Source of the DNA: Aestuariivirga litoralis
GTDB taxonomy: Bacteria > Pseudomonadota > Alphaproteobacteria > Rhizobiales > Aestuariivirgaceae
Direction of reading: 5' to 3'
NCBI RefSeq assembly: GCF_015714715.1
Contig: NZ_WAHS01000001.1
Location: 1,612,001 to 1,676,000 of the forward strand
Length of the DNA: 64,000 nt
The stretch's first letter is position 1. Each line of letters begins with the position of its first letter. This document shows, piece by piece, positions 18,035-52,991 of the stretch. The notes under the pieces were generated by a model. The model was not told where the DNA came from. It saw nothing but the letters and a program-made list of their open reading frames with translations, and searched no databases. Both the position numbers and the translations under genes were made by a program.

Positions 18035-18043
18035 ACTGTGGAA

Positions 18044-18063: not shown

Positions 18064-18073
18064 TTGCCAATGC

Positions 18074-18297: not shown

Positions 18298-18303
18298 ATT
18301 CAC
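18288..18303. promoter_or_regulatory. Operator-like palindrome over the eryA -10 box
   Basis: GTGAA-ATAATA-TTCAC has perfect five-base arms and covers the -10 box of the eryA promoter. It shares TGAA-N6-TTCA with the leftward site. This placement fits repression by EryD. CRP sites would have two bases fewer between the GTGA and TCAC half-sites. Confidence 0.58.
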
Positions 18304-18344
18304 AACGATAATAAATTACACCAACGGGAGAAGAGTGCGTCCGC

Positions 18345-24435: not shown

Positions 24436-24450
24436 GCGTGAGTTCCGTTT

Positions 24451-26384: not shown

Positions 26385-27883
26385 TACGCAGCACCTTGCG
26401 CGGTGAGGCCGTAGGCGGCGCGCATCAGGGTTTGATCGTCGGCGTCCTTGGCGTCGATGATGTCGACCACGCGGCCGTTGAAGATCACGACGGCGCGGTC
26501 ACAGGCCATACGGATTTCTGCGAGTTCTGATGTGTAGAAGAGTATGGCTGCGCCCTGATCCGCCAGTTCGCGCACCAATGTGTAAATCTGCTGCTTGGTA
26601 CGCACATCGATACCGCGGGTGGGATCGAACAGCAGCAAGGTTTCCACGCCGCGCGCGATCCAGCGGGCGATGGTGACCTTCTGCTGGTTACCGCCGGAAA
26701 GACGGCGCACTTCACCTTGCGCACGCGTGTCGATCTGCAGACGCGCGATGGCGGCGTTTACTTTTTCGGCTTCGCGCTTCAGCGCCACGATGCCCCAGTT
26801 CTTTAACGCTGCGACGCGCGGCAATGCGATGTTCTCCTGCACCGAGCGTGACATAAGTAGCGCACTGACGCGGTCGCCAGGAACCAAATTGATTCCGGCG
26901 GCGATTGCGGCGGCGGGATGATCGAAGCTCATATTCTTGCCGTCCACTTCCAACGTGCCCGCCTTTGGCTTTTGAAAACCGGCCAGCACGTTGAACAATT
27001 CGTCCTGGCCTTGGCCTTCGAGTGCGACCACGCCAAGTACTTCGCCCGGAAACATTTCAAAGCTGACATCGGTCAATCTGGTGCCAGCTGCAATTCCATG
27101 CACATTCAGGCGCGGAACTTTGGAAGATGTTTGTTCATGCTGCGCTGCCTGTGCGCGTGTCGTGGGCTTCAAGGCCGCGCCCAGCATCAGTTCCACGATA
27201 TGTTCTTCGACACCCGCTTCAATCGGCAAGTCACCCACCGTCTTGCCATCGCGCAGCACAGTGGCACGGTCGCACAATTGCGCAATTTCGGTGAAGCGAT
27301 GCGACACATAAATCACCGCCATGCCTTCATCGGCATGCTTGCGCACGACCTTCAACACCCGCTCCACCAGATCAGCCGGCAGCGCCGCTGTCATTTCATC
27401 GAGCAACAAAATATCCGGCTTACTGGCCAGCGCTCGGGCCAGATCGAGAATGCGCAAGGTGGCCAGCGGCAGTTCGTGCGTGTGCAAAGACAGATCAAGA
27501 TCGGGAATGCCAAGCTCCCGCGTCCAATGCACAAAGTCTGCCACCGGCGTGTCGCCAAGGCGCAGATTATCCGCCACGCTCAAATCCGGAATGAGCGATG
27601 GCTCCTGATAAACCGGCACCAAGCCAGCGCGGCGCGCGGCAGCGGGCGAGCCAATCGAACGGTTTTCACCACTGATTTCAACCTCGCCGGTGTCGCGCTT
27701 CAGCGCGCCAGTAAGAATTTTGACAAAGGTGGATTTGCCGGCGCCATTGGCGCCCATCAAGGCGACCACTTCGCCACGGTGCAATTTCAGCGCGGCATCA
27801 CGCAAAGCCAGAACAGCGCCGAACCTTTTGGATACGCCGCGCGCATCCAGGATCAGAGCCGCCTCTTCAGCTTGCGTATTCAT
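26384..27883 (-). CDS. Ribose-type sugar ABC transporter ATPase (tandem domains)
   Basis: A 499-residue tandem ATPase. First half: Walker A GANGAGKST near residue 45, LATLRILDLARAL in place of the usual LSGGQ region and ILLLDEMTAALPADL as Walker B, where the expected Pro after Glu is replaced by Met (DEMTAAL rather than DEPTSAL). Second half: GVVALEGQGQDELF, LSGGNQQKVTIARWI and LLLFDPTRGIDV. The first domain therefore looks degenerate at its signature. The start at ATG 27883 puts ARGVSKRFG in the usual place; the longer frame covers the hairpin after the binding-protein gene. Confidence 0.89.
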   Translation of the reverse strand: MNTQAEEAALILDARGVSKRFGAVLALRDAALKLHRGEVVALMGANGAGKSTFVKILTGALKRDTGEVEISGENRSIGSPAAARRAGLVPVYQEPSLIPDLSVADNLRLGDTPVADFVHWTRELGIPDLDLSLHTHELPLATLRILDLARALASKPDILLLDEMTAALPADLVERVLKVVRKHADEGMAVIYVSHRFTEIAQLCDRATVLRDGKTVGDLPIEAGVEEHIVELMLGAALKPTTRAQAAQHEQTSSKVPRLNVHGIAAGTRLTDVSFEMFPGEVLGVVALEGQGQDELFNVLAGFQKPKAGTLEVDGKNMSFDHPAAAIAAGINLVPGDRVSALLMSRSVQENIALPRVAALKNWGIVALKREAEKVNAAIARLQIDTRAQGEVRRLSGGNQQKVTIARWIARGVETLLLFDPTRGIDVRTKQQIYTLVRELADQGAAILFYTSELAEIRMACDRAVVIFNGRVVDIIDAKDADDQTLMRAAYGLTAQGAA

Positions 27884-27902
27884 CTCCTGCCACCATTCCA
27901 GT

Positions 27903-27934
27903 GAAGAAAGACCCCCGGCGCACGGCCGAGGGTC
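27903..27934 (-). terminator. Hairpin between binding-protein and ATPase genes
   Basis: Ten-base arms GACCCCCGGC (27910-27919) and GCCGAGGGTC (27925-27934) with a five-base loop and one wobble pair. On the minus strand a TTTCTTC stretch follows. It starts about 25 bases after the binding-protein stop and probably acts as an attenuator or 3' protector of that message. Confidence 0.68.
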
Positions 27935-27959
27935 CAGCATTGTGTTGCTTCAAGCTAAC

Positions 27960-28979
27960 TTATTCGCCCGGGCCTTTGCAGGCAATAACCTGATCCATCG
28001 AATAGGTGGTGTAATTCGGGATCGAAACACTCACCGGCCATTCCGGCGAGAGCTTCGGGTTCTGCGCCTTGGCGATCATGTCCTTGCCTTCCGGGGTGGA
28101 ATTATCCCACAGAACAGGGTCGACCAGAACGGTGTTGCTGGCTGGCTTCTTGCCATCGAGGATCTGCAAAGCAAGGGCAACGCCCGCACCACCGACAGAA
28201 CCCGGATTGGTGACAGCAGCACCGACGAGATCCTTCTCGTTCAGCAGCTGGCTCACGAAGCCCGCATTGTCAGCACCGACCACCGGCACCATCTTGCCGC
28301 CGGCTTCCTTCATCGCATCGACGATCACATTGTCGATGCCCGAAGTCCACACGCCGTCAAAGGCAGCGCCAGACGAGATCATGTCGTTGATCTGCTGCTT
28401 GGCCTTGTCCTGCTGCCAGCCGGTGAACACTTCCTGGGCCACTTTCACGTCCGGGAATTCAGCCAGGGCCTTTTTGAAGCCCTTATCACGATCGGTATCA
28501 GCCGATGCACCGGCAGCGCCGCGCATATAAAGCACCGCACCCTTGCCGCCCATTTTCTGGAACAGCCACTTGGCGCCCAGATAGGCATATTGTTCCTGGT
28601 TGTTGGACAGGATGTAGGCCGAAGGTTCGGTCACAGCCTGGTCAACGGCCACCACAACGATGCCCTTGGCGGTTGCTTCCTTGATGGCCGCATTGATGCC
28701 ATCCGGATTGGCAGGGTTCACCACGATGGCATCCACGCCGGCCTGTATCAGGTTGCGCAGGTCTTCAAGCTGGCCAGCAGCGTCAGTGTTGCGGTGAGCG
28801 ATGTTCAGCGAAGCCACTTCGCCCGAAGCCAAAGCCTGAGCCTTCATGGCGCAGACCATTTCTTCGCGCCAGCCATTGCCCTGCACGGTGTTGGAAATGC
28901 CGATCTTGTAAGGCTTAGCTTCAGCCACGCCAGCAATTGCAACGACCAAAGCCGTGGTTGCGAGTAACACTTTCATCAT
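27960..28979 (-). CDS. Sugar ABC transporter periplasmic binding protein (RbsB/MocB type)
   Basis: A 339-residue binding protein. The signal peptide of about 21 residues ends at AEA, followed by KPYKIGISNTVQGNGWREEMVCAMKAQ and DLRNLIQAGVDAIVVNPANPDGINAAIKEA, typical of ribose- or inositol-type receptors. GGGAG lies nine bases before the first ATG. MocB of rhizopine loci is of this family and also sits beside mocA- and mocC-like genes, as here. The ligand is a sugar, cyclitol or derivative; the family does not say which. Confidence 0.88.
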   Translation of the reverse strand: MMKVLLATTALVVAIAGVAEAKPYKIGISNTVQGNGWREEMVCAMKAQALASGEVASLNIAHRNTDAAGQLEDLRNLIQAGVDAIVVNPANPDGINAAIKEATAKGIVVVAVDQAVTEPSAYILSNNQEQYAYLGAKWLFQKMGGKGAVLYMRGAAGASADTDRDKGFKKALAEFPDVKVAQEVFTGWQQDKAKQQINDMISSGAAFDGVWTSGIDNVIVDAMKEAGGKMVPVVGADNAGFVSQLLNEKDLVGAAVTNPGSVGGAGVALALQILDGKKPASNTVLVDPVLWDNSTPEGKDMIAKAQNPKLSPEWPVSVSIPNYTTYSMDQVIACKGPGE

Positions 28980-29023
28980 TTTCGTCTTCTCCCTTTGGGT
29001 TTTCAGTTTCTTCTCAAGGCGCG

Positions 29024-29938
29024 TTATTTCACGAAGGGGCGCAGTATATCCCGCGCCAACAGGAATCCCCTTTTGACCTTTTCGTCTGTTCCTTCAAACG
29101 TCCGGTCTTCGTGTTCGATGATCACTGAGCCATCGTATTTAGCACGATAAAGCGCAGCAAATATGTCATTCCATTTCACATCACCAAGCCCCGGCATGCG
29201 CGGCACTTGCCAGCCAATGCCGAGTGACATGATGCCATTTTCGTAAAGCTTGTCCTGGTCGATCATCAAATCCTTGGCATGAACATGCACCATGCGCTCG
29301 CCAAATTCATGGATGAAACGCACCGGGTCAATCATCTGCCAGATCAGATGGCTGGGATCGAAATTCATCCCGATATCCTTGCCCCAGGTTTCAAACATGC
29401 GGCGCCAGATTTTCGGCGAATAGGCGATGTTGTGGCCGCCGGGATATTCGTCATAGGAGAAAATCATCGGGCAATTTTCGATGGCGAGCATCACGCCGTT
29501 GTCTTTGGCGTGGGAGACGACTTCACCGAAAATGCCTTCGGCCCGTCTCCAGTTTTCATCCACGTTGAGGGTGCGGTCACCACCGAGAAAGGTGTTGACG
29601 ACAGGCACTTTCATCAAAGCGGCGGCGCTGATCACCTTCTTCAAATGGCCGATCACTTGTGCGCGGTGCTCGGCATCGGCATGCAGCGGATTGGGATAAT
29701 AGCCGAGGCCGGATATGCTGACGCCTTTGTCCTTCAGCGCGCCGGTGATTTCGCTGGCCTTGCCCTTGCTCAAGCCATCGACATTGATGTGAGATGTTCC
29801 GGCATAGCGACGGGTTTCTCCAGCAGCGGCGGGCCAGCAGGCCACTTCCAGTGCTTCAAATCCAACAGAGCCGGCCCAATCGGCCACGGCATTCAATTCA
29901 GTATCGGCGAATGGCGCCGTGAGGATTCCAAGTTTCAT
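29024..29938 (-). CDS. Sugar-phosphate isomerase/epimerase family protein (MocC/IolE-like TIM barrel)
   Basis: A 304-residue xylose-isomerase-like barrel. Metal ligands expected for the fold are seen as Glu in MLAIENCPM, Asp in GMNFDPSHL, His in VHVHAKD and Glu in VIIEHEDRT. In inositol and rhizopine breakdown the MocC and IolE proteins of this fold act on keto-inositols. It lies between a binding-protein gene and a MocA-like dehydrogenase gene (15-base gap), which supports a joint pathway: oxidise with MocA-like, then isomerise or dehydrate here. A simple ketose epimerase role is equally compatible. Confidence 0.85.
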   Translation of the reverse strand: MKLGILTAPFADTELNAVADWAGSVGFEALEVACWPAAAGETRRYAGTSHINVDGLSKGKASEITGALKDKGVSISGLGYYPNPLHADAEHRAQVIGHLKKVISAAALMKVPVVNTFLGGDRTLNVDENWRRAEGIFGEVVSHAKDNGVMLAIENCPMIFSYDEYPGGHNIAYSPKIWRRMFETWGKDIGMNFDPSHLIWQMIDPVRFIHEFGERMVHVHAKDLMIDQDKLYENGIMSLGIGWQVPRMPGLGDVKWNDIFAALYRAKYDGSVIIEHEDRTFEGTDEKVKRGFLLARDILRPFVK

Positions 29939-29953
29939 GTCATCGCCCGTTGC

Positions 29954-31099
29954 TTAAACACTGACCCACGCTCCGGTCATGGCGCTTTTGATTACAGCAT
30001 CGCAGACCAGCATTTCATAGTGCCCATCTTCAAAGCTCGCATAGGTTGAAGTGGGCGATCGCTTGCCCTTGGCCACGTCCTCATAGACCTGGCGGAACAG
30101 CGCGAAGAATGTATCGGCAAAGCCTTCCACATGGCCGCCCGGCAGGCTGGCTGCAGCGGCACCCATCGGGTTCATCAGCGAAGCGTCACGCTGCAAAATC
30201 TGGTTCGGCCCATCACGGTGGCCGATCCACAAATGATCCGGCGTTTCGGAATCCCATGAGGCTGATGCAGCAGCACCCGCCACATCCCATTGCAGTGAAT
30301 TCTTGCGGCCGAAATTGATCTGGCTGGTGGACATCACACCGCGCGCGCCGTTGGCATAGCGCAACATGATGGTGGAGGCATCATCGGTTTCAATCTTGCG
30401 AGCTTCCGTGGCGCCTTTCGACTGGGTGAAAGTTTCAACTGGACCCGTGGGCTTCTGCCGCTCGGTGATGAAGGTCGAAAGCTCGGCCATCACAGCCGTG
30501 ATGCGCTGGCCGGTGATGAAGCTGGTAAGATCAAGCCAGTGCGTGCCGATATCGCCGACTGAACGCAGCACGCCGCCCTGATCGGTTTCCAGCCGCCAGT
30601 TCCAGTCAGTCGGCTTGGCCAGCCAGTCCTGATGATAATGCCCGGTCACAAAACGAATGTCGCCGAGGTCACCCGCCTGTACCATGCCGCGCGCTTGCTG
30701 GTTCAAGGGATAGAAGCGCGTGTTGTAACAGACTGCGACGACCTTGCCGGAGGCTGCGGCGAGCTTCACCATTTCCGCCGATTCAGCCGAGGTCATCGCC
30801 AATGGCTTTTCGCAGATGACATGGCGGCCAGCGGCGAGGATTTGCTTTACTTGTGGATAATGTGCGTGGTTCGGCGATGTGACATGCACAACTTGTATTG
30901 CCGGGTCTTTTAGCAACTCATCGAGCGAGCCATAAGACTTGGCAATGCCGAGTGCGCCTGCGCGAGTGGAGGAACGTTCGGGCGATGAACCCAACACGCC
31001 GACAACTTTCACGCCAAGGCGGCGCAGCGCCTGGATATGCACTGTGCCGATGAAGCCTGTGCCGATGACGGCTGCACCAATCGCGCTTGGATCAGACAA
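29954..31099 (-). CDS. Gfo/Idh/MocA family oxidoreductase (MocA-like)
   Basis: A 381-residue NAD(P)-dependent dehydrogenase. The Rossmann motif is [21 protein letters not shown], the EKP motif [17 protein letters not shown], and the catalytic region [18 protein letters not shown] contains the Asp-x-x-x-His pair of inositol and glucose dehydrogenases. I set the start at the TTG at 31099 because GGAGGA lies eight bases upstream; an ATG at 31114 without a ribosome site is the alternative. Either start overlaps the upstream SDR stop. It resembles inositol and rhizopine dehydrogenases in context and motifs. Confidence 0.87.
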
Positions 31100-31817
31100 C
31101 GGAATATCCTCCATCAATGGCCAGGCATGTGCCGGTCATGAAGCCTGCGGCTTGCGAGGCGAGGAACAGCACGGGTGGTGCGATGTCTTCGGGCTTGCCC
31201 CAGCGCCCCATCGGCGTGCGCAGATTGACGGCGGCGACGTGATTGGGATCAGTGCGGCTCTTGGCCGATTGCTCGGTCACGATGAAGCCCGGCGCAATCG
31301 CGTTGACGCGGATGCCATCCGGTGCCCAGGCGATAGCGAGTGATTTCGTGAGCTGCTGCACAGCGGCTTTGCTGGCGCCGTAAGCCGGATTGCGCGGGCT
31401 GCCGAAGCTGGCATACATGGAAGCGATGTTGATCAACACGCCCTTCGCCGCTTTCAATTGCGCATGAAAAGCTTCCGCCGTGCGGAAGGTGCCGAACAGA
31501 TTTACGTCAACAACCTTCTGGAAAAATTCCGGCGCCATTTCCTCGCCGCGCGAGGTGATGGCCGCGCCGTTCACGAGAATGTCGAGCTTTTCGGTTTTGG
31601 TTGCGAGTGCGCGCACCGCGTTGAGATCAGTTACATCCAGCTGATGATAGGTGAAGCGCGCCTGGTCTTCTGGCGCAGGTGCTGCTTCAGCCCCGGTGAT
31701 TTCAACATGCGCTCCCGCATCCTGAAAGGCGCGCGCAATGGCAGCGCCAATTCCTGCGCGGCTGGCTCCGACGACCAGTACACGGGCGCCGGAAAAATCA
31801 AATGTGAGTTTACTCAT
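31092..31817 (-). CDS. Short-chain dehydrogenase/reductase (SDR)
   Basis: A 241-residue classical SDR. The cofactor site is [16 protein letters not shown], with an extra-short NNAG-equivalent [10 protein letters not shown]. The catalytic set is Ser in [12 protein letters not shown] with Tyr and Lys in [32 protein letters not shown] follows. It should oxidise a hydroxyl or reduce a ketone of a sugar or cyclitol with NAD(P). It is the first gene of the transporter and MocA/MocC-like operon and is preceded by a repeat-rich AT region (31872-31912), where RpiR could bind. Confidence 0.9.
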
Positions 31818-31871: not shown

Positions 31872-31912
31872 TTCATTTCATTTTTTCATTTTTGAATATT
31901 TCATTTCATTTT
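31872..31912. promoter_or_regulatory. AT-rich repeat region upstream of the SDR operon, RpiR operator candidate
   Basis: The 13-base motif TTCATTTCATTTT occurs twice, at 31872-31884 and 31900-31912, 28 bases apart start to start. A related TTTTCATTTTT and the small palindrome TGAA-TAT-TTCA (31893-31903) lie between. The second copy includes the stop codon of the RpiR regulator gene. Its place just before the first gene of the next operon suggests promoter control by that regulator. Confidence 0.5.
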
Positions 31913-32766
31913 GCCGGGAGACCGAGCCGGCGGCCGAGGCTGACAATGATTGCCTGGCATACGACCATGGCTGGCACCTGCGAACGAAAATGGCCAAGCC
32001 GGGCCTCATTCACATAGAGAACATGCTTGGCCAGTTTGGCCACCGGCGAGAGTTCATTGTCGGTGATCGCCAGTACCGGGTTGCCCTGTTTGGCGGCAAG
32101 TTTGGCGGCCTCCACCGTTTCCGGTGTGTAGTCATCGAAGGTCATCACCCACAGGGCTTCACCGGGCCTCATCGCAGCCACTTGGAGCCTCCGCATGGCT
32201 CCCAAATTGTCTACCAAATGCGCCCTTTTGCCTACATTAGAGAGGCCGTAAACCGCATAGGCACCGAGGCCAAAGGCACCGCGTGCGGCTGCCACATAGA
32301 CCGAGTCTGACTTCGCCAGAGCATCCACAAAGGCATCCAATTGCTTCCGGTCGAGCGCCTCTTCGATGCGTAACAGAGACTGTACGGCCGCCTCGATAAA
32401 ACCTCCAAAAACCTGCTTTGGCTCGTCCAAATCAGCACTCGAACCTGGCTGCATGCGAGGCTCCGCCATGCGTGCGGCATAGGGCAGACGCGGACCCAGA
32501 AGGCGCTCGCGAAATACGCCCTGCAGTTCAGCAAATCCTGCAAAGCCAAGCTCTTTGGTGAATCTTGTAATAGTTGCCGGTGGAACTTCAGCCTGCTCCG
32601 CGAGGCGCACCAGAGTGTTGATCGCCACCTCTTCCGGATGGTTCAAAAAATAGCGCGCCACCTGTTCCAACCGCTTCGGAAATTTTCCAGCGCGATCAAC
32701 GAGTTCGGTTCTTAAAGCTTCATAGTCACGAGGTACTTTGGACGCGCGTTTTCCGGCTGTTTTCAT
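31906..32766 (-). CDS. MurR/RpiR family transcriptional regulator
   Basis: A 286-residue regulator. The N-terminal helix-turn-helix covers about residues 35-80 (FLNHPEEVAINTLVRLAEQAEVPPATITRFTKELGFAGFAELQ). A SIS sugar-phosphate-binding domain follows (SVYVAAARGAFGLGAYAVYGLSN, then WVMTFDDYTPETVEAAKLA). The effector is probably a phosphorylated sugar, cyclitol or breakdown product. It is coupled by ATGA to the PanB-like gene and ends the upstream operon, while its probable targets start 89 bases further on. Confidence 0.9.
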   Translation of the reverse strand: MKTAGKRASKVPRDYEALRTELVDRAGKFPKRLEQVARYFLNHPEEVAINTLVRLAEQAEVPPATITRFTKELGFAGFAELQGVFRERLLGPRLPYAARMAEPRMQPGSSADLDEPKQVFGGFIEAAVQSLLRIEEALDRKQLDAFVDALAKSDSVYVAAARGAFGLGAYAVYGLSNVGKRAHLVDNLGAMRRLQVAAMRPGEALWVMTFDDYTPETVEAAKLAAKQGNPVLAITDNELSPVAKLAKHVLYVNEARLGHFRSQVPAMVVCQAIIVSLGRRLGLPAK

Positions 32767-33563
32767 TCGATGCCCTTGAGGAACTTTGCATGTTCCCTTG
32801 GGTCCATCTTTACCACATGCTTGTCTTGCGGATAGGCCCCGCTCGCCACATCGCTGCGGAATTCCTGAAACGCCTTCACGCGCTCTTCCTGCAGACGGTC
32901 ATACTCGGCGGCGAAATTGCGGTACACTTTGGCATGGCGGGGCATGTGCCCGCGATTGGTGCCGAGGATATCTTCGGCAAAAAGATATTGTGCATCGCAG
33001 CCCGGGCCAGCGCCCATTGACCAAAGCAACAGATCGAGCTTGGCGCTGATCGCGGTTGCGACTTCGACGGGCACCACTTCGATTTCCACCGCGAAGGCGC
33101 CCGCATCCTGATAGCGGCGGCATTCGTCATAGAGCGCAATTGCGGATTCAGCGGTTTTGCCCACGGCGACGAAACCGCCGGTCCAAGTGGCGCGTGACGG
33201 CACGAGGCCGACATGGCCGACGATGGGGATGAATTCTTTCGTGAGATATTTCACCGTTTCCATGCTGCCTGAGCAGTAAATCGCATCGGCGCCTGCCATC
33301 AGCATCTTGCCAGAATAACGCAGGTATTCATCCGGCGTGCCAGCTTCAAGATGGGCTTTGCCCGTCATCGAGAACACGGTTGGTGCGGCCTTGCGGTATT
33401 CGGGATCTGTCACCAGCGCCTCTGGTACCGATGCGATATCAATGCCGGCGCGCTCTGCCGCCGCTGCTTCATCCATAGAGAAATAACGCAGCATGGTGAG
33501 CTGCGTCTTGCCCTTCAGTGCCTTGAGGTCTGCGACCGTCGGCTTTTTGCGTGGCGATGTCAT
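32763..33563 (-). CDS. PanB-like protein (ketopantoate hydroxymethyltransferase superfamily), diverged
   Basis: A 266-residue barrel related to 3-methyl-2-oxobutanoate hydroxymethyltransferase. GHVGLVPS, GGFVAVGKT, EIEVVPVEVATAIS (E162 aligned to the catalytic Glu) and SMGAGPGCDAQYLFAEDILG match PanB well. The metal-binding positions do not: GDS reads VPEA (Glu48), ADMPF reads SMTGK and KLEGG reads YCSGS. These are by-eye alignments from memory. It is therefore unlikely to make pantothenate and more likely an aldolase or lyase for a branched keto acid or keto-sugar formed in this pathway. Four-base overlaps tie it to the oxygenase upstream and to RpiR downstream. Confidence 0.78.
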   Translation of the reverse strand: MTSPRKKPTVADLKALKGKTQLTMLRYFSMDEAAAAERAGIDIASVPEALVTDPEYRKAAPTVFSMTGKAHLEAGTPDEYLRYSGKMLMAGADAIYCSGSMETVKYLTKEFIPIVGHVGLVPSRATWTGGFVAVGKTAESAIALYDECRRYQDAGAFAVEIEVVPVEVATAISAKLDLLLWSMGAGPGCDAQYLFAEDILGTNRGHMPRHAKVYRNFAAEYDRLQEERVKAFQEFRSDVASGAYPQDKHVVKMDPREHAKFLKGIE

Positions 33564-34669
33564 TCCGCTGCGATCTCACCCTGTTCGATGCTGACATTGT
33601 GGAAGCCGTCTTTATAGGGCCGTGCGCCGGGCGGCAATTCGCGGCGAATGTAATAGCCGGGCTCCTTGCGTTGACGCAGAAGTCCTCGCGCCATTTCCAC
33701 ATAGGCATTCCACATGGATGAATTGGGCGTGGGCAGATCATTTTTGATCAAGGCATGCAAGCGCGGCAGCGCGTGATAGGGCACCATAGGGAACATGTGG
33801 TGTTCCACGTGGTAATTCATGTTCCAATAAATCCAGCGGCTGATCGGGTTGATATAGACCGTGCGGCTGTTCAGGCGATGGTCCAGCACATCTTCGGCGA
33901 GGCCAGCATGCTGCATCAGGCCCGTCAACACCATGTGCCACGTGCCATAGATGCGCGGCAAGCCGATCAGCATTAGTGGCAGAATGGACCACGTAGCCAC
34001 TGCCCAGATGATGGCCGCAGCGTAGATCGCAACATGAATGCGCGCCCACATGATCGCCTTCTTGCGCTCATTTTCCGGGATGTAATCCTGCTCATCCGCC
34101 GTGACGATGCCCAATGCATTCTTGAAGATGATCTTGAAGTGATAATAGATGTCGGGGATGCCGATGAAATGCAGCACGCCCATTATGATGTCGGGCGGCT
34201 GCATGAAGCCGATCTCAGGGTCGCGGCCCACGATGATCGTATCGGAATGATGGCGCGCATGGCTCCAGCGCCAGCTGGTCGGGTTGCGCATCACCATGAA
34301 TGACGCAATGTGATAGACCACATCATTCATCCAGCGGGTGCGAAACGCCGTCCCATGGCCCGCTTCATGCCAACGTGAATCGCACACCGAGCCATACATT
34401 ACGCCATACACCAGGAAGAAAGGCACAGCCCACCACGAGCCCCAGAAATAGATTCCGCCCGCAGCCGAGATCAGCAGCAGGGCAAACCAGATGATGGTAT
34501 CGCGGATAGCGGGACCATCCTTGCGCTGCATCAGTTCCTTCATCGTGGCGCGCGGAATTTCGGAATGATACCAATCCGCCGAGGCTAGGCCCAATTGCAC
34601 GGCACGCCGGTTCTCTTCACCGGTCAGACTGTAGTCGCGCTTCTTATAGGCGGCAGCGGAGATCGTCAT
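33560..34669 (-). CDS. Membrane di-iron oxygenase/desaturase family protein, MocD-like
   Basis: A 369-residue membrane protein with all three histidine boxes of the desaturase and hydroxylase family: H101 and H105 (HEAGHGT), H137, H140 and H141 (HARHH), H287, H290 and H291 (HVEHH). Hydrophobic pairs lie at about 57-92 and 212-245. The family inserts oxygen or a double bond using electrons from a ferredoxin or cytochrome. Sitting between a sugar-epimerase-like gene and a PanB-like gene in a sugar transporter operon argues against lipid desaturation. MocD of rhizopine loci, which helps demethylate O-methyl-scyllo-inosamine, belongs to this family; I infer a MocD-like role. No ferredoxin or reductase gene is nearby. 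Confidence 0.82.
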   Translation of the reverse strand: MTISAAAYKKRDYSLTGEENRRAVQLGLASADWYHSEIPRATMKELMQRKDGPAIRDTIIWFALLLISAAGGIYFWGSWWAVPFFLVYGVMYGSVCDSRWHEAGHGTAFRTRWMNDVVYHIASFMVMRNPTSWRWSHARHHSDTIIVGRDPEIGFMQPPDIIMGVLHFIGIPDIYYHFKIIFKNALGIVTADEQDYIPENERKKAIMWARIHVAIYAAAIIWAVATWSILPLMLIGLPRIYGTWHMVLTGLMQHAGLAEDVLDHRLNSRTVYINPISRWIYWNMNYHVEHHMFPMVPYHALPRLHALIKNDLPTPNSSMWNAYVEMARGLLRQRKEPGYYIRRELPPGARPYKDGFHNVSIEQGEIAAE

Positions 34670-35859
34670 GGTTTCTTTCCTGCGGCTCCATGCAGTGGGA
34701 CAAACTTTCCCGAAGGCTTTGGATAATCGGTGTCAGGCTGGCGGGCAATGGCGGCAATTTGCTGCTCTGCCTTCTTGATGTCCGCTGCGCCATCCAACAC
34801 CATGAAGCGTGTGTCATAGGTCCGCTGTTCGCCAGCTTTCAGCCAGATCATTTCATCACGCCCGCGCGCAAACAGATTGCCCTTTGCATGATGCGTTGAG
34901 GGTTCAACTGCCATCACGTAGTGGCCGGACTGGAAATTCTGCCACTGATAGGAACAGGGCAATTGCGACTTCTGCGTTTCGATCAACATGCCGATGCCGA
35001 GAGCATCATTGACCACGGCGACAGGCGTATGGCCTTTTGCATCAGCGCCCATGTCGTATTCCCAGACCTGTTCACTGAAACCATTGATCGGTGATGGGCA
35101 GCGGCGATACCCCACGCCCTGCTTCTCCAATCCGCCGGATTCATGCGAGGCCCAAGACACATCCTTGATGGGCGCGAGGTAGCGCGAACCTTCATCGACC
35201 AGCGGATAGCCCATATTGATGTGGTAAAAGAACATGTGTGGTGTCACCGCAAAACCGGCATTGACCACACGGTCGGTGAGCCGGATTTCATTGCCGCCCA
35301 GATCCGCTTCAATGCGGCGGTGCAATTGCAGCACTTCGCCGAACACGGCGGCCTGGATGATCACACCTTCGGCCCAGAGCACGCAGCGATCTCCATTCCA
35401 GGTTTCGCCGTAGCCGGTAAGACGCGCGGGAATGCCGCTGATGCGGCCATGCAAGGACTGCTTCACGGTGGCTTTGCGCGGATAATTATAGTTTTCGGCG
35501 GGCACTTCTTCCGGGCCCAGGATGTGATCGAGCCCGCAGGTGCTGAGGAAGCCGGAAAAAGATCTGGTCCAGCCAAGGCCCTGCTCGCCTTCCGGCTCAT
35601 GCAGGCCGGGGTGACGAAAGCCGGTGGGCGAATGCCAGCCCATGGCGCGGCCATTATGGGCGAGATCGGAAATATCCATGGCGCGGTCCACCAGCACCGA
35701 GAATGTAAGGCCTGAACCCGTGCGGAATTCGAGCACACGGATGCCGCGTTCCACGCCATCGCCAAAAGTGACAAGCCGCACGCCGCCAAATTGCGTGAGG
35801 CTGCCGGCGCGTTCCGCTAGGGAAGCAGCGTTCTGCTTCTTGCCGTAAAGTGTTGTCAT
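34666..35859 (-). CDS. DUF4432 aldose-epimerase-like protein
   Basis: A 397-residue protein of the galactose mutarotase-like fold, DUF4432 branch. Visible features include DISDLAHNGRAMGWHSPTGFRHPG, FFYHINMGYPLVDEGSRYLAP (His plus acidic site of mutarotases) and QWQNFQSGHYVMAVEPSTHHAKG near the end, a typical C-terminal Glu motif. Such proteins probably interconvert anomers or epimers of an unusual sugar; no reaction is established that I know. It starts exactly on the last base of the ATPase gene (TGATG-type) and overlaps the oxygenase gene by four bases. Confidence 0.83.
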   Translation of the reverse strand: MTTLYGKKQNAASLAERAGSLTQFGGVRLVTFGDGVERGIRVLEFRTGSGLTFSVLVDRAMDISDLAHNGRAMGWHSPTGFRHPGLHEPEGEQGLGWTRSFSGFLSTCGLDHILGPEEVPAENYNYPRKATVKQSLHGRISGIPARLTGYGETWNGDRCVLWAEGVIIQAAVFGEVLQLHRRIEADLGGNEIRLTDRVVNAGFAVTPHMFFYHINMGYPLVDEGSRYLAPIKDVSWASHESGGLEKQGVGYRRCPSPINGFSEQVWEYDMGADAKGHTPVAVVNDALGIGMLIETQKSQLPCSYQWQNFQSGHYVMAVEPSTHHAKGNLFARGRDEMIWLKAGEQRTYDTRFMVLDGAADIKKAEQQIAAIARQPDTDYPKPSGKFVPLHGAAGKKP

Positions 35860-36614
35860 CAGTGCATCTCGCCGGTGATGATGTCTTCGACCTCCGCAAT
35901 GGTCTTTTTCTTGGGATCGATATCGTCTGCCACCACCGTACCACGGCGCATGACCACAATACGGTCCACCACCTGGAACACGTGATGAATATTGTGCGCG
36001 ATGAAAATGCAGGAATGGCCGCTGTCACGTGCACCACGCACGAAGCGCAGCACACCTTGGGTTTCAGCCACGCCCAGATTGTTGGTGGGCTCGTCGAGAA
36101 TGATCAGATCACTGTCGAAATGCATGGCACGCGCAATGGCCACCGCCTGGCGTTCGCCGCCCGAAAGCGAACCGATGGGCGTTGACGGCGGGATGTTCTT
36201 TGAAATGCCAACGCGCTTCAGAAGATCGCGCGCCACGCCATTCATCGCTTCATGATCCATGCGGTTCAGAAAGCGCGGCGCTTTGACCGGCTCGCGCCCG
36301 AGGAAGAGATTGCGGGCAATCGACAGCTGCGGCACGAGGGCGGAATCCTGATAGATCGTCTCGATGCCATTGGCGATGGCATCGGCGGTGGTGTGCATGT
36401 CCACCTTCTTGCCTTTGATGTGGATTTCACCAGAACTCAGCGGAACAGCGCCCGAGAGCACCTTGATCAGCGTGGATTTGCCAGCGCCATTATCACCCAA
36501 CAGGCCGACGATCTCGTTGTGGCGGACGGAAAGGTTGACATTGGTCAGCGCCTGCACCCGGCCATAGTGCTTATTGATGTTGGACATGCGAATGAGGTCA
36601 TCAGCCATGATCAA
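35859..36614 (-). CDS. Sugar ABC transporter ATPase, single domain
   Basis: A 251-residue ATPase with Walker A GDNGAGKST near residue 38, signature LSGGERQAVAIARAM and Walker B LIILDEPTNNLGVAE. It is half the length of RbsA-type proteins, as in FrcA and similar fructose-type importers, so the functional unit needs two copies. It overlaps the permease gene (ATGA) upstream and DUF4432 downstream. Confidence 0.91.
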   Translation of the reverse strand: MIMADDLIRMSNINKHYGRVQALTNVNLSVRHNEIVGLLGDNGAGKSTLIKVLSGAVPLSSGEIHIKGKKVDMHTTADAIANGIETIYQDSALVPQLSIARNLFLGREPVKAPRFLNRMDHEAMNGVARDLLKRVGISKNIPPSTPIGSLSGGERQAVAIARAMHFDSDLIILDEPTNNLGVAETQGVLRFVRGARDSGHSCIFIAHNIHHVFQVVDRIVVMRRGTVVADDIDPKKKTIAEVEDIITGEMH

Positions 36615-37594
36615 GTCCCCGCATGATGGCGGCGTTCGAGGTAATTGTGCAGAACCATCATGCCCAGGATGATGCCTCCGATGAAGATATTATAGGCGAG
36701 ACCCGGCACACCGATGAGCACGATGCCATTGCGCATCAGGCGCAGGATGAGAATGCCCAACACCGTGCCGATGATGGTGCCGCGACCGCCGGTTAATACT
36801 GTGCCGCCGATCACCACCATCGCAATCACTTCCAATTCGTAGCCAGTGCCTGAATTGGGGTTGGCCGCCTGGGTGCGGATTGAGCTGATGATGCCTGCCA
36901 AGCCTGCCATCAGCGAAGAGAACATGAAAAGCATAATCTTGACGCGCGCCACCGGCACACCGCGCGCCCGCGCAGCGCCGGCATTGCCGCCTGAAGCCTG
37001 AATCCAGTTGCCCACGCGCGTTTGGGTGAGAACATAATGGGTGCCAAGTGCCGCCAGCACAAACCACAGCATCGACATGTAAAGCCTGATGCCGAAGACG
37101 GTGGTGTCACCCACCAGAACCTGCGCCAGCCATTGATTATCAGCGCGCCAGGTGTTTTGCGGGAAACCTTGCGTGGTGTAGAGCGCCGTGCCGCGCACCA
37201 CCAGCAACATGCCCAGTGTGACAAGGAATGATGGGATCGCCTGCTTGGTCACCAGCATCCCATTGGCCCAGCCGATAAACATGGCGGCCGCCAAGGTGAT
37301 GACGAAAGCGATGGGCATGGAGACCCAGCCGGTATTGAACAGAGTCCACATCATCACGGCAGAAAAACCGAAGACGGAACCGACCGAGAGATCAAATTCC
37401 CCTGATGTCATAAGAAGGGTCATTGCCAGCGCGATGAGGCCAAGCTCCACTGTGAAGGTGAGTGCGTTGGATACATTCAACGCCGAAAGGAATTCCGGAT
37501 TGATGGCGGTGAAGACAATGAGCTCCAGCAGCAGCAGGATGAAGGGGCCGAGTTCCGGCTTCGCGATCAATTGCTGCACCCATTTACGTTCCAT
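36611..37594 (-). CDS. Sugar ABC transporter permease
   Basis: A 327-residue ribose/fructose-type permease. LMTSGEFDLSVGSVFGFSAV, TRVGNWIQASGGNAGAARARGVPV and VIGGTVLTGGRGTIIGTVLG are the family marks. The start at ATG 37594 has AGGAG seven bases upstream; the longer frame overlaps the binding-protein gene and the hairpin. It is the only permease of this importer, so a homodimer is expected. Confidence 0.9.
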   Translation of the reverse strand: MERKWVQQLIAKPELGPFILLLLELIVFTAINPEFLSALNVSNALTFTVELGLIALAMTLLMTSGEFDLSVGSVFGFSAVMMWTLFNTGWVSMPIAFVITLAAAMFIGWANGMLVTKQAIPSFLVTLGMLLVVRGTALYTTQGFPQNTWRADNQWLAQVLVGDTTVFGIRLYMSMLWFVLAALGTHYVLTQTRVGNWIQASGGNAGAARARGVPVARVKIMLFMFSSLMAGLAGIISSIRTQAANPNSGTGYELEVIAMVVIGGTVLTGGRGTIIGTVLGILILRLMRNGIVLIGVPGLAYNIFIGGIILGMMVLHNYLERRHHAGT

Positions 37595-37610
37595 GAGTGA
37601 TCTCTCCTGA

Positions 37611-37649
37611 GAAACAAGTTGTCCGGCCCGCGAGGAAAGCGGACCGGAC
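37611..37649 (-). terminator. Hairpin between binding-protein and permease genes
   Basis: Eleven-base arms GTCCGGCCCGC (37621-37631) and GCGGACCGGAC (37639-37649) around a seven-base loop, with one wobble. The downstream minus-strand sequence AACTTGTTTC is only moderately T-rich, so it is likelier an mRNA stabiliser or partial terminator than a full stop. Confidence 0.6.
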
Positions 37650-37661
37650 TTTGGTGGCACC

Positions 37662-38609
37662 TTACTTGGAGGAAAGGATCTTGTCGTAAACGGCGGCGGT
37701 GTCTTTGCCATAGAGCGCGCCGGTGATGATGTTGAAGCCGGGTGGAATGCCGTTGGATGCCATGGCTGCCAGCGACAGGGCCATATAGCTCGTCGCCTGC
37801 GGGTCCTGCCATTGGGCAGCATTCACATAGCCGTTCAGCACTTCTTGTGTCGTATCCGTCGAGTTGCCCCAACCGACGACCGGGATTTCGCCGGGCTTCA
37901 CGCCCACTTGGTCAAACACGCGCTTGATGCTGCCGGTGACCAGATCGCCGAGGCCGATGATGCCGTTGATCTTCTTGCGGTTGGCGGTGAGATAATCCGC
38001 CATGCGGTTGATCACTTCGGCCTGGTCGAGCGTGGTATCGGTTACTTCCCAGGTGATGTTTTTGGGCTTCAGGATCGTCGATGCACCTTCAGCTTCCTGC
38101 ACGCCATAGGTGGCGCCCGGAACCTCAACCGGCATCCAGATGAAGCCGCCATCCTTCACCAGGCCCTTGTCCACCAGATAGGCGGCCCAGCCTTTGCCAA
38201 CGACGCCGAGATCAGCGCCGACATAGGCCTGGAAATTGGCCTTGGGGTCTGGCGTGTTGAAATTAATGATGGGAATGCCAGCGGCGCGCGCCTCATCGAC
38301 AACCTGAACAAGGCTGCCCGGATCCGGGCTGGTGGTCACGATGCCTGCGGGCTTTGCCGCGATGGCGGCGCGCACGGCCTCCTGATGCGACGGTACGTCA
38401 CCCGAATGGAAAGAGGTTTTCACCGTGGCACCGGTATCGGCGGCCCACATATTTGCACCTGCGAGGAAGTAGGTCCAAACCGGGTCGGCGGGGCCGCCAT
38501 GTGAAATCCAGTAATAGGTTTTTCCGGCGCCTGCGGCTTTGGCTTTGCCAGCAAGCGCGGCCATTGGCAGTGCTGCGGCAGCCGACAGCAGATTGCGTCT
38601 CTTCAACAT
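37662..38609 (-). CDS. Sugar ABC transporter periplasmic binding protein
   Basis: A 315-residue receptor. The signal region MLKRRNLLSAAAALPMAALAGKAKA looks like a Sec signal with a basic start. The mature part begins KTYYWISHGGPADPVWTYFLAGANMWAADTG and continues with GIVTTSPDPGSLVQVVDEARAAGIPIINFNTPDP, the ribose/fructose-type fold. It heads the operon of permease, ATPase, DUF4432, oxygenase, PanB-like and RpiR genes. GGGAG lies seven or eight bases before the ATG. Confidence 0.89.
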   Translation of the reverse strand: MLKRRNLLSAAAALPMAALAGKAKAAGAGKTYYWISHGGPADPVWTYFLAGANMWAADTGATVKTSFHSGDVPSHQEAVRAAIAAKPAGIVTTSPDPGSLVQVVDEARAAGIPIINFNTPDPKANFQAYVGADLGVVGKGWAAYLVDKGLVKDGGFIWMPVEVPGATYGVQEAEGASTILKPKNITWEVTDTTLDQAEVINRMADYLTANRKKINGIIGLGDLVTGSIKRVFDQVGVKPGEIPVVGWGNSTDTTQEVLNGYVNAAQWQDPQATSYMALSLAAMASNGIPPGFNIITGALYGKDTAAVYDKILSSK

Positions 38610-38779: not shown

Positions 38780-39808
38780 TTGCGCACCACCATAGAAGAC
38801 ATTGCACGGCAAGCTGGCGTTTCGACGGCGACAGTGGACCGTGTGCTGAATGGCCGAGCCAATGTGTCGGCCCGCACCAAGGCTTCAGTGCTTTCGGTCG
38901 CCCGGCAACTCGGCCATTTCGAGGGCCGCGAAGAGGAAGCCGACAAGCTTGGCCCAGTGGGGCCAAGGCTCAAACTCGATTTCATCTTACCTACCGCGCG
39001 CAACCAGTTCATGGACTTGCTGCGTGGTGAGATTGAAGCGCAAGCTGCCGGGCGCACCAATCTTGATGTGAAAGTCACTGGGGTAGACGGCATCAACCCG
39101 CATGTGCTTGCCGAGACAATCCGATCCTTCGACGGCGCCTCAGATGGCATCGGTATTGTCGCACTGGATCATCCGGATGTACGCGAGGCGATCCGCAGCG
39201 TGGCGTCGCGTGGCGTCAAGATCGTTACCATCGTATCCGACATCGCGCATGTGCCACGCGTGGCCTATATCGGCATCGACAACCGCGCGGCTGGGCGACT
39301 GGCAGGCTATCTGGTGCATCGTTTCTACGCGGGCAACGGGTCCGGCAAGGTCGCAATGTTCTCGGGCTCGTTATCCTATCGCGGGCATGAAGAACGCGAG
39401 ATGGGTTTTAGGCATGTGCTGGCGGAAGAAAGTCAGCAACTACAGATCGTCGAGCAGCTGGAAATGATGGACGATCCGGACCACGCTTATGAAATTTCGA
39501 TGGAGGTGCTGGACCGGCATCCGGATTTGACCGCGATCTATAATGTGGGTGCGGGCAATTCCGGGATCGGGCGCGCACTGCGCGACAAGGATTTGCGCCG
39601 GCACGTGCTGCTGATCGGCCATGAAGCAACAGAAGACACCAGGCGCCTGTTATTGGATGGCACGCTTGATGCCGTCATCGACCAGAACCCGCGCGTGGAA
39701 GCGCGCGAGGCGTTGAACGCTCTCGAAGGTGCGATCACCGGCAAGCATTTTGAAAAGCATGCGCCGCGCCTACAAGTGATATTCCGTGAAAACATTCCAG
39801 AAGTTTGA
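38780..39808 (+). CDS. LacI family transcriptional regulator
   Basis: A 342-residue repressor-type protein. The DNA-binding start is classical: TTIEDIARQAGVSTATVDRVLNGRANVS, with the hinge region just after. The effector part is of the sugar-binding-protein fold (IGIVALDHPDVREAIRSV, VAYIGIDNRAAGRLAGYLVHRFY). A TTG is the start, since no ATG lies before the helix-turn-helix; an AGGGA is about ten bases upstream. It is divergent from the binding-protein operon and is followed, 14 bases on, by the PhyH gene, so it may control both. Confidence 0.9.
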   Translation: MRTTIEDIARQAGVSTATVDRVLNGRANVSARTKASVLSVARQLGHFEGREEEADKLGPVGPRLKLDFILPTARNQFMDLLRGEIEAQAAGRTNLDVKVTGVDGINPHVLAETIRSFDGASDGIGIVALDHPDVREAIRSVASRGVKIVTIVSDIAHVPRVAYIGIDNRAAGRLAGYLVHRFYAGNGSGKVAMFSGSLSYRGHEEREMGFRHVLAEESQQLQIVEQLEMMDDPDHAYEISMEVLDRHPDLTAIYNVGAGNSGIGRALRDKDLRRHVLLIGHEATEDTRRLLLDGTLDAVIDQNPRVEAREALNALEGAITGKHFEKHAPRLQVIFRENIPEV

Positions 39809-39822
39809 GGCAGGAAATAGAT

Positions 39823-40629
39823 ATGGCTGTAACTGACGACGTAAAGACGCTCTATCAAGACGGCATCGTTGCGCACAAAGGCGCATTCCCCGCCGAATGG
39901 GTTGATGCCATGCGCGAAGACATGATGACGGCCTTCTGGTCTGCCATCCAGCGCCCGGGCGGTGCCGTCGGGCGCGGGCCACGGCGCTGGTATGTTGAAA
40001 TCCACCCGCAGGATTTCAAAGGATTTGCCGAACTGACCTCGCATCCGTGGGTGGTTGATATGGCGCGGGCGGTATGCGGGCCGGATTATGAAATCGTAGA
40101 GATCGGATTTGATGTGCCGTTCCAGGGTGCGAAGAACCAGCCCTGGCACCGAGACTTTCCTTCACCGTCAGATACCTATGAACAGAAGAAGATCACTTCG
40201 CTCGCATTCAACCTGACGGGCGTTGATGTCACGGAGGACATGGGGCCGTTTGAAATCGCTGTCGGCACACAGTGGGAAGACGGCCGCGCTTGGAACCATG
40301 AAATGTTCCCGGTCAAGGAAGAATGGCCCCTATTTGCAGCGCGTGGCGTTCGTAAATTTCCCAAGCGGGGCGATATTTCTTGCCGCTCTGCGCTGACTAT
40401 CCACCGCGGCACCGCGCATGGTTCGCCGATTGCGCGGCCAGTGATGGTGCTAGGCGTCGATGCACCAGGGGCCGGGCATTCAGCGTTGCATGATATGATG
40501 GTCACGCAGGACTATTACGATGCGCTGCCCGAAGTGGTTCGGAAGCATTTGATCTGCCGCGTGGTGGACAAGCTGGTGCCGATTTCGCAGAAGCACGATA
40601 TCGAAGGATTGGTCATGGGCGTGGAATAG
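39823..40629 (+). CDS. Phytanoyl-CoA dioxygenase (PhyH) family Fe(II)/2-oxoglutarate oxygenase
   Basis: A 268-residue oxygenase. The iron ligands fit the H-x-D ... H pattern: H109 and D111 in NQPWHRDFPSPSD, with a distal His in HRGTAHGSPIARPVM (H194 or H199), and R205 as 2-oxoglutarate contact. PhyH relatives hydroxylate small molecules such as ectoine, proline or amines rather than lipids. AGGAAA lies nine bases before the ATG at 39823. Co-direction with the LacI regulator and proximity to the oxygenase operon suggest a second oxidative step on the same substrate; that is inference. Confidence 0.85.
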   Translation: MAVTDDVKTLYQDGIVAHKGAFPAEWVDAMREDMMTAFWSAIQRPGGAVGRGPRRWYVEIHPQDFKGFAELTSHPWVVDMARAVCGPDYEIVEIGFDVPFQGAKNQPWHRDFPSPSDTYEQKKITSLAFNLTGVDVTEDMGPFEIAVGTQWEDGRAWNHEMFPVKEEWPLFAARGVRKFPKRGDISCRSALTIHRGTAHGSPIARPVMVLGVDAPGAGHSALHDMMVTQDYYDALPEVVRKHLICRVVDKLVPISQKHDIEGLVMGVE

Positions 40630-42793: not shown

Positions 42794-42804
42794 CCGCTTC
42801 CACC

Positions 42805-45204: not shown

Positions 45205-45208
45205 TCTG

Positions 45209-48200: not shown

Positions 48201-48523
48201 ATGTCATATTGGAAAGGCCAATCCTTGGCACTGTCTTCGACGAAGAAATCGAAAGGATTATAGACCGTCATATCAGCGACGAGATCGACTTCGATTTTGA
48301 ACTCAGTGACCGGATTGGGGAAAACGAAACGCGCCAGCCAATTGCCGTAAGGGTCTTGCTGGTAATTCACGAAATGATCGGCGGGCGAGACTTTCAGCGA
48401 GTGCGAAATCACCCGCGTTCTGCTGTGCGGCGCTGGCCGCAGGCGGATGACTTGCGGACCCAGCGAAACCGGCCTGTCATATTTGTAGTGGGTCAGATGG
48501 TACAGTGCTGCCTTGATGGCCAT
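45209..48523 (-). CDS. DUF2126 protein with N-terminal transglutaminase domain
   Basis: An 1104-residue protein, normal for the family. Residues 1-300 are transglutaminase-like with triad C180 ([12 protein letters not shown]), H229 (DLHAWVEV) and D245 (GLDPTSG). The rest is the DUF2126 region: [44 protein letters not shown], later [31 protein letters not shown], which resembles a glutamine-synthetase-type amidoligase fold (as proposed in comparative genomics). It is the first gene of the three-gene set, read toward the fused ATP-grasp/alpha-E gene. It would both ligate and cleave amide bonds; target unknown. Confidence 0.9.
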
Positions 48524-51649: not shown

Positions 51650-51664
51650 ATGGGAGGAAGTAAA

Positions 51665-52945: not shown

Positions 52946-52955
52946 TATCGGGACC

Positions 52956-52987: not shown

Positions 52988-52991
52988 TGGC

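What the first reader, a model, noticed from the sequence alone, without database searches (positions are those of the whole stretch)
31906..38609. Sugar importer fused in one operon with a di-iron membrane oxygenase, a DUF4432 protein and a PanB-like enzyme
Seven genes on one strand, most overlapping by one or four bases: binding protein, permease, single-domain ATPase, DUF4432, desaturase-family oxygenase with all eight box histidines, PanB-like, RpiR. The oxygenase resembles the MocD type used in rhizopine demethylation, but the usual Rieske ferredoxin and reductase partners (MocE, MocF) are not in the window. I know of no described pathway with this gene set. It could demethylate or hydroxylate an imported sugar or cyclitol ether, then cleave the product.
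Basis: partly seen in the sequence, partly recalled or inferred. Interest (0 to 1): 0.8.

Follow-up and report, generated by a model that had tools for sequence, protein, structure and literature searches.

The report
Methyl-sugar demethylation operon with PanB-like partner
This operon probably imports a sugar or sugar alcohol that carries a methyl ether and strips the methyl off with an oxygenase of the kind used on rhizopine; a changed PanB-like enzyme travels with such oxygenases and may catch the released one-carbon unit, which has not been tested.

Summary
The seven-gene operon is real and the gene calls are right. The oxygenase is MocD-type: 60.7% identical to the desaturase of a rhizopine locus, in the same tree cluster. 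Gene order is conserved: of 80 relatives, 64 carry MocE ferredoxin, 60 the PanB-like gene, 43 DUF4432. The missing partners are elsewhere in this genome (four MocE ferredoxins, two MocF-like reductases).

New point: the PanB-like protein is not PanB. Nineteen true PanBs keep the metal and substrate residues; 146 PanB-likes have lost them, yet all keep the catalytic His and Glu. Of 37 genomes (of 397) with it, 35 also have the MocD-type oxygenase. It occurs beside three oxygenase families, beside inositol pathways, and in the rhizopine operon, where purU follows it. This genome's only PurU lies in a sister MocE/MocF cluster. I infer that it handles the methyl-derived C1 unit, perhaps onto tetrahydrofolate, rather than cleaving the sugar.

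Against: 28 of 63 oxygenase genomes lack it; purU is within 8 kb of only 3 of 78 PanB-like loci and folD of 0 (folD: 2 of 17 true-PanB controls). The substrate is unknown and no activity is tested.

The parts
37662..38609 (-). Periplasmic sugar-binding protein (Peripla_BP_4)
   Evidence: NCBIfam rhizopine SBP model only 62.8 of 420 bits
37621..37649 (-). Hairpin between binding-protein and permease genes (consensus match only)
36611..37606 (-). Permease (BPD_transp_2)
   Evidence: start chosen by me
35859..36614 (-). Single-domain ABC ATPase, 251 aa
34666..35859 (-). DUF4432, aldose-1-epimerase-like
   Evidence: Pfam 310.9 bits; profile matches PDB 3ty1, a hypothetical aldose 1-epimerase, E 2.6e-36
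33560..34669 (-). MocD-type di-iron membrane oxygenase
32763..33563 (-). PanB-like protein without PanB's metal and keto-acid residues; proposed C1 handler
31906..32766 (-). RpiR-type regulator
   Evidence: found in 5 of 80 related loci
31092..31817 (-). SDR dehydrogenase of the same conserved island
29954..31117 (-). GFO/IDH/MocA dehydrogenase of the island
29024..29938 (-). Xylose-isomerase-like TIM barrel of the island
27960..28979 (-). Second sugar-binding protein
26384..27940 (-). Second ATPase (two ABC domains)
25425..26384 (-). Second importer, permease 1
24451..25428 (-). Second importer, permease 2
23359..24435 (-). Second GFO/IDH/MocA dehydrogenase
38780..39808 (+). Divergent LacI-type regulator, probable regulator of the operon (inferred from position)
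   Evidence: a LacI-type gene is in 43 of 80 related loci
39805..40629 (+). PhyH-type dioxygenase overlapping the LacI gene by 4 bases; membership uncertain
   Evidence: no homologue in the 80 related loci

Best explanation
The operon imports and oxidatively O-demethylates a methoxylated sugar or cyclitol. The binding protein, permease and ATPase import it (family inference). DUF4432, an aldose-1-epimerase-like protein, presumably interconverts ring forms. The MocD-type di-iron oxygenase hydroxylates the O-methyl carbon with electrons from MocE/MocF proteins encoded elsewhere in the genome; the hemiacetal falls apart to the free sugar and formaldehyde (general chemistry of oxidative demethylases, inferred here). 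The PanB-like protein, which has lost PanB's metal and keto-acid residues but keeps its His/Glu pair, handles the one-carbon product; the mechanism I think most likely is transfer of formaldehyde or the hydroxymethyl unit to tetrahydrofolate, after which FolD and PurU release formate. The sugar then goes through the SDR/GFO/TIM enzymes of the same island. Shown: gene content, conservation, kinship, residue loss, co-occurrence. Inferred: substrate class, demethylation, electron supply in trans, the whole C1 step. Rough odds: MocD-type O-demethylation 0.65; PanB-like acts on the C1 product 0.45; with tetrahydrofolate 0.3.
For: Oxygenase 60.7% identical to the desaturase of L108, whose regulator scores 739 against a 650-bit rhizopine-MocR cut-off and whose ferredoxin scores 178 against 136 bits for the MocE family; same tree cluster. 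MocE in 64 and PanB-like in 60 of 80 oxygenase loci. PanB-like genomes: 35 of 37 have the oxygenase, against 63 of 397 overall. PanB-like occurs beside desaturase, FA_hydroxylase or PhyH oxygenases and in clusters with inositol genes (L110; L125). PurU, confirmed by NCBIfam, overlaps PanB-like by 4 bases in two DUF4432-type relatives of the window operon (L045, L211), follows it in the rhizopine operon (L108), stands with FolD in R. rosettiformans (L111), follows MocF in a locus without PanB-like (L267), and the only PurU over the cut-off in this genome is in the sister MocE/MocF cluster.
Against: 28 of 63 genomes with the oxygenase lack PanB-like, so it is not obligatory. PurU lies within 8 kb of only 2 of 57 and 1 of 21 PanB-like loci and FolD of 0 of 78, while FolD lies near 2 of 17 true PanB controls. 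No folate enzyme is in the window operon. The genome has a glutathione-type formaldehyde dehydrogenase, so another C1 route exists. MocE and MocF are not in this operon. Second-best fold matches of the PanB-like model are aldolases and lyases. No tool here shows substrate or activity.
Confidence: 0.45

Rival explanations
1. The PanB-like enzyme is an aldolase or lyase that cleaves the carbon skeleton after the oxygenase step.
For: PanB itself forms and breaks a C-C bond (recalled); after PanB, the nearest solved folds are an aldolase and PEP mutase/isocitrate-lyase-type lyases.
Against: It accompanies the oxygenase in clusters whose skeleton enzymes differ, including inositol-gene clusters (L110, L125) and the rhizopine operon (L108), and similar inositol plus desaturase-MocE-MocF clusters lack it (L253, L255, L256, L268). 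The metal ligands of PanB are gone.
Confidence: 0.2
2. The oxygenase hydroxylates a ring or side-chain carbon of a sugar without a methyl ether, and DUF4432 and PanB-like rearrange the product.
For: A distant membrane di-iron relative, the arginine hydroxylase GntB of guanitoxin synthesis, hydroxylates a small polar molecule (family function from the model name; only 34 of 380 bits).
Against: Closest characterised relative is the rhizopine-locus enzyme; PurU adjacency in relatives points to a methyl group.
Confidence: 0.2
3. Formaldehyde is cleared by the glutathione pathway, and the PanB-like protein has some other role with the oxygenase, for example stabilising it or acting on the epimerised sugar.
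For: Glutathione-type formaldehyde dehydrogenase in the genome; 28 of 63 oxygenase genomes do without PanB-like.
Against: PurU placed next to PanB-like or MocF in several separate loci.
Confidence: 0.12
4. The oxygenase is an acyl-lipid desaturase that happens to sit in a sugar operon.
For: Pfam FA_desaturase domain.
Against: Clusters with the rhizopine-locus enzyme, has MocE in 64 of 80 loci, and scores 29 of 500 bits in the DesB desaturase model.
Confidence: 0.03

Closest known systems
Rhizopine catabolism genes mocDEF (with mocR, mocBA, mocC)
   Same: Desaturase-family oxygenase about 61% identical; in the rhizopine locus L108 the order desaturase-MocE-MocF-PanB-like-PurU shares oxygenase and PanB-like with the window.
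   Different: The window has no MocE, MocF, MocR, MocC or PurU; it has DUF4432, RpiR, LacI and a different importer. That MocDEF demethylates rhizopine is recalled; the passages I saw of PMC10107442 only say mocDEF is involved in catabolism and rhizopine-induced.
6-O-methyl-D-galactose demethylation (cytochrome P450, ferredoxin, ferredoxin reductase) of marine bacteria
   Same: Oxidative demethylation of an O-methyl sugar with ferredoxin and reductase, giving sugar and formaldehyde (PMC10033563, passages).
   Different: Oxygenase is a P450; no PanB-like gene is mentioned in the passages seen.
Ketopantoate hydroxymethyltransferase (PanB)
   Same: Fold (Foldseek TM 0.75 to 3vav), His and Glu kept in 146 of 146.
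   Different: Metal and keto-acid residues lost, N-terminal part diverged, scores below both PanB cut-offs.
purU-mabO-folD operon of nicotine catabolism (pAO1)
   Same: A demethylating pathway with its own FolD and PurU (PMC3891541, passages).
   Different: There an amine oxidase makes methylene-folate; here no folate enzyme is in the window operon and PanB-like is only a proposed entry point.

Membership tests
MocD-type oxygenase | FA_desaturase domain with eight box histidines | tested here: met
MocD-type oxygenase | Groups with the desaturase of a rhizopine locus rather than with other desaturases | tested here: met
   40 rows; only two other desaturases as outgroup, branch 83/87, saturated
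MocD-type oxygenase | MocE ferredoxin and MocF reductase in the same operon | tested here: not met
   none in the window; four MocE and two MocF-like elsewhere in the genome. 16 of 80 relatives also had no MocE found within the locus
MocD-type oxygenase | Demethylation of its substrate | not testable with these tools
   needs enzyme assay or mutants
Rhizopine catabolism locus | Rhizopine-type MocR regulator | tested here: not met
   regulators of the operon are RpiR and LacI types
Rhizopine catabolism locus | Rhizopine binding protein | tested here: not met
   62.8 of 420 bits
PanB (ketopantoate hydroxymethyltransferase) | Residues D45, S46, D84, K112, E114 (E. coli numbering, recalled) | tested here: not met
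   window has E, A, G, Y, S; all five kept in 18 of 19 true PanBs (one has T46)
PanB (ketopantoate hydroxymethyltransferase) | Passes the curated family score | tested here: not met
   123.6 of 272 and 97.1 of 207.55 bits
PanB (ketopantoate hydroxymethyltransferase) | PanB fold | tested here: met
DUF4432 | Passes Pfam gathering score | tested here: met
   310.9 against 32.5 bits
Oxidative O-demethylation pathway | C1-clearing genes nearby | tested here: inconclusive
   none in the window operon; PurU beside PanB-like in two close relatives and PurU in a sister cluster, but rare overall
Oxidative O-demethylation pathway | O-methyl substrate bound by the importer | not testable with these tools
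   needs ligand screen

The most novel reading that the evidence does not exclude
The PanB-like proteins are a new enzyme family that catalyses entry of formaldehyde, or of the hydroxymethyl hemiacetal made by the oxygenase, into tetrahydrofolate without PanB's metal site, and serve as the C1 acceptor of oxidative demethylation modules built on three oxygenase families (desaturase-type, FA_hydroxylase-type, PhyH-type).
Probability: 0.3. Interest if true: 0.88.

Novelty: new variant of a known kind. Interest (0 to 1): 0.6.

Why it matters
Methyl ethers of sugars and inositols are common in plants and algae, but few bacterial routes that remove the methyl are known. This ties an uncharacterised, repeatedly used gene module to the one studied case (rhizopine) and shows that a rhizopine operon itself carries a PanB-like gene; PanB is not named in the main text of the rhizopine paper I looked at (0 occurrences). 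If the PanB-like family speeds capture of formaldehyde by tetrahydrofolate, it would supply an activity that He et al. (PMC7073904, passages) found too slow to support growth when spontaneous and for which they could only suggest an evolved enzyme. That would bear on how demethylating bacteria avoid formaldehyde and on synthetic methylotrophy, and the test is simple.

Tried and rejected
Acyl-lipid desaturase: rejected on tree and neighbours. True PanB: rejected on residues and scores. K_hyp, a 350-residue protein found in 8 of 80 loci and never together with DUF4432 (43 of 80): I guessed a mutarotase, but it has no Pfam hit, no PDB match and no profile match to DUF4432 (probability 0.6%), so the guess is dropped. 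PurU/FolD as a general companion of PanB-like genes: not supported as a rule (PurU 3 of 78, FolD 0 of 78 within 8 kb; FolD 2 of 17 true PanB controls); kept as specific adjacencies. PhyH: 3 of the 20 control loci also had it; all three proved to be intermediates, not true PanB (L232-L234). C97 as catalyst: not invariant (130 of 146). A rhizopine transporter link: weak. Structure search of the oxygenase (model pLDDT 82.1): two chains of a chloroplast motor complex at TM about 0.55 and no desaturase or alkane hydroxylase title among the 50 rows shown of 174, so uninformative. Operator search upstream of the binding protein: two weak inverted repeats. Survey labels come from my own ORF caller plus BLASTP against reference genes, so counts are approximate and can miss genes; the rows are related, so Fisher values are not corrected for kinship.
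Full report
What is there. Seven minus-strand genes at 31906-38609 encode a periplasmic sugar-binding protein, permease, single-domain ATPase, DUF4432 protein, FA_desaturase-family oxygenase, Pantoate_transf-family protein and RpiR regulator. Four junctions overlap by four bases and one by one base. The other strand carries, divergently, a LacI-type regulator and a PhyH-type dioxygenase. The oxygenase has H101, H105, H137, H140, H141, H287, H290 and H291, invariant among 49 sequences.

Wider anatomy. The genes at 23359-31817 (SDR, GFO dehydrogenase, TIM barrel, second ribose-type importer, second GFO dehydrogenase) belong to the same conserved island. In Rhodobacter sp. SY28-1 (L022) the run DUF4432, oxygenase, PanB-like, RpiR, SDR, GFO, TIM, binding protein, ATPase, permease, permease has the window's order at 67-80% identity; the first importer is not upstream there. 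SDR, GFO, TIM, second binding protein and second ATPase are all found with the oxygenase in 15 of 80 loci.

Conservation. One scan of the genome collection with the oxygenase gave 178 relatives, of which the best 80 were kept. In those 80 loci, some cut by contig ends, I found a MocE ferredoxin in 64, a PanB-like gene in 60, a GFO dehydrogenase in 66, DUF4432 in 43, a LacI-type gene in 43, a MocF reductase in 9, DUF4432 together with PanB-like in 40, and neither MocE nor PanB-like in 7.

The missing partners. In this genome (3.3 Mb, 4 contigs) no Rieske protein lies in the window, but four MocE-family ferredoxins pass the TIGR02377 cut-off elsewhere and two reductases match the MocF-like protein at 49-50% identity. 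Sister clusters: desaturase-MocE-PanB-like near C1:12 kb; desaturase-PanB-like near C2:530 kb, with an FA_hydroxylase gene and a PurU-GFO-MocE-TIM-MocF run about 7 kb further on; and FA_hydroxylase-importer-MocE-PanB-like near C1:357 kb. Electron supply in trans is plausible, not shown.

Kinship of the oxygenase. The R. indicum plasmid locus L108 has a regulator at 739 bits against a 650-bit rhizopine_MocR cut-off and a MocE at 178 against 136 bits, so I take it as a rhizopine locus. Its desaturase is 60.7% identical to the window's. In a 40-row tree the window protein falls in a starred group of 4 with Rhodobacterales proteins, inside a cluster of 38 that includes the L108 desaturase; two other desaturases of this genome fall outside at 83/87 support (not starred), on saturated branches. 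That outgroup is thin. The rhizopine paper names mocDEF as catabolic and the mocD promoter as rhizopine-induced (PMC10107442, passages); that MocDEF removes the methyl is recalled.

The PanB-like protein. It scores below both PanB cut-offs. In an alignment of 173 sequences (near-copies included), 19 true PanBs, defined by K112 and D84, also all have D45 and E114, with S46 in 18 and T in 1. In 146 PanB-likes (defined by lacking K112) E114 is kept in 0, D84 in 1 and D45 in 8; the window has E, A, G, Y, S. Eight are intermediate. The His136 and Glu181 equivalents are kept in 173 of 173. E160 and H210 are invariant in 146 of 146 PanB-likes; in true PanB the first is V in 18 of 19, the second F in 15 and H in 4 of 19; C97 is in 130 of 146. 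H210 lies in a loop predicted with pLDDT below 50. The model (pLDDT 83.6) is closest to PanB structures (TM about 0.75) and then, far weaker, to an aldolase and PEP mutase/isocitrate-lyase-type enzymes. So the fold and an acid/base pair are kept, while PanB's metal-enolate chemistry as I recall it is unlikely.

Who it travels with. Among 397 genomes of the order, 37 have a PanB-like gene (E up to 1e-30), 63 a MocD-type oxygenase (E up to 1e-40) and 61 a MocE; 35 of the 37 have the oxygenase (Fisher 1.9e-30, not corrected for kinship), 32 have MocE, and 28 of the 63 oxygenase genomes lack PanB-like. Of the 60 PanB-like places listed I examined 57 (not the window itself, one partial hit and one weak hit): within 8 kb a di-iron oxygenase gene lies in 50 (desaturase type 40, FA_hydroxylase type 12), MocE in 38, MocF in 14, PhyH in 1. 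From the class-wide sample I took the 28 best places outside this genome; 26 loci are counted here and one in the order set. Of the 26, 21 are PanB-like proper: di-iron 8, MocE 5, PhyH 4; 5 are intermediates: PhyH 1. Twenty weaker places served as control: 17 true PanB with di-iron 0, MocE 0, PhyH 0, MocF 1, FolD 2; and 3 intermediates with PhyH 3. Pfam confirms the FA_hydroxylase and PhyH labels for those checked.

Why I think C1 and not skeleton cleavage. PanB-like genes occur in clusters with iolG, C, D, E and B (L110) or iolG, C, D and B (L125), where the skeleton is provided for. Clusters with desaturase-MocE-MocF and inositol genes exist without PanB-like (L253, L255, L256, L268). The rhizopine operon reads desaturase-MocE-MocF-PanB-like-PurU, followed by FolD in two frames. 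PurU overlaps PanB-like by four bases in two DUF4432-type relatives of the window operon (L045, L211). FolD and PurU lie close by in R. rosettiformans (L111). PurU follows MocF in a locus without PanB-like (L267). The only PurU over cut-off in this genome is in the sister MocE/MocF cluster. NCBIfam confirms PurU in L045, L211, L267, L125, L102 and L108 and L111. Against this: PurU is within 8 kb of only 2 of 57 and 1 of 21 PanB-like loci and FolD of none of the 78, while FolD is near 2 of 17 true PanB controls; and a glutathione-type formaldehyde dehydrogenase is present in the genome. Dedicated PurU and FolD in a demethylating pathway have precedent in nicotine catabolism (PMC3891541, passages), and PanB has been implicated in folate side reactions (PMC4814558, passages).

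Literature. I saw passages only of PMC10107442, PMC3891541, PMC7073904, PMC4814558 and PMC10033563. Searches on MocD/rhizopine with Rieske or desaturase, DUF4432, PanB with Rieske or desaturase, PanB with formaldehyde and demethylation, rhizopine with PurU or PanB, di-iron O-demethylation of sugars, and pinitol/ononitol catabolism listed no paper that by its title or the abstract start shown describes this gene set or a PanB-like gene in demethylation; lists were capped and the library is open-access only. He et al. considered PanB as a possible promiscuous catalyst of formaldehyde-folate condensation in E. coli, deleted it together with ltaE without effect, and concluded that the spontaneous reaction is too slow for growth (PMC7073904, passages).

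Verdict. A conserved but, as far as I could find, uncharacterised catabolic island: a new variant of the mocDEF kind, most likely an importer plus oxidative O-demethylase for a methoxy sugar or cyclitol. The PanB-like family is the interesting part, with a specific, testable and unproven proposal.

Noticed in passing
L126:4938-6643, L134, L135: PanB-like genes outside the MocE clusters, some with a PhyH-type dioxygenase gene next to or near them (4-base overlap in L126); a second oxygenase partnership.
   Followed up: partly
L232, L233, L234, L141-L145: Eight PanB homologues intermediate in residues (D, S, S/C, K, Q at positions 45, 46, 84, 112, 114); PhyH lies within 8 kb in 4 of the 8. Possibly another uncharacterised PanB relative.
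   Followed up: no
L109:17683-18729 and homologues in L039, L073, L076, L081, L083, L094, L097, L098: A family of about 350 residues without a Pfam hit, found in 8 of 80 loci and never in the 43 with DUF4432, as if one replaces the other.
   Followed up: partly
L121:7360-12860 (genome G161, 1.6 Mb): A small genome packs a desaturase, MocF, MocE, PanB-like, a second desaturase and an FA_hydroxylase-like gene in one run, and has five PanB matches in all.
   Followed up: no
L122-L124: In three genomes of about 1.4 Mb (all of one family, f33) a PanB-like gene overlaps or nearly touches a distant desaturase, next to a DUF1800 gene (L122) and without a MocE nearby.
   Followed up: no
window 10365-19925 and 51650-61643: Further sugar-type ABC importers with two FGGY kinases and an FAD oxidoreductase, and two importers with MalK-type or TOBE ATPases; the window is rich in uptake systems.
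   Followed up: no
window 40948-48523: A Peptidase_Mx zinc peptidase, a transglutaminase-like protein and two large ORFs (809 and 1104 aa) adjoin the island.
   Followed up: no
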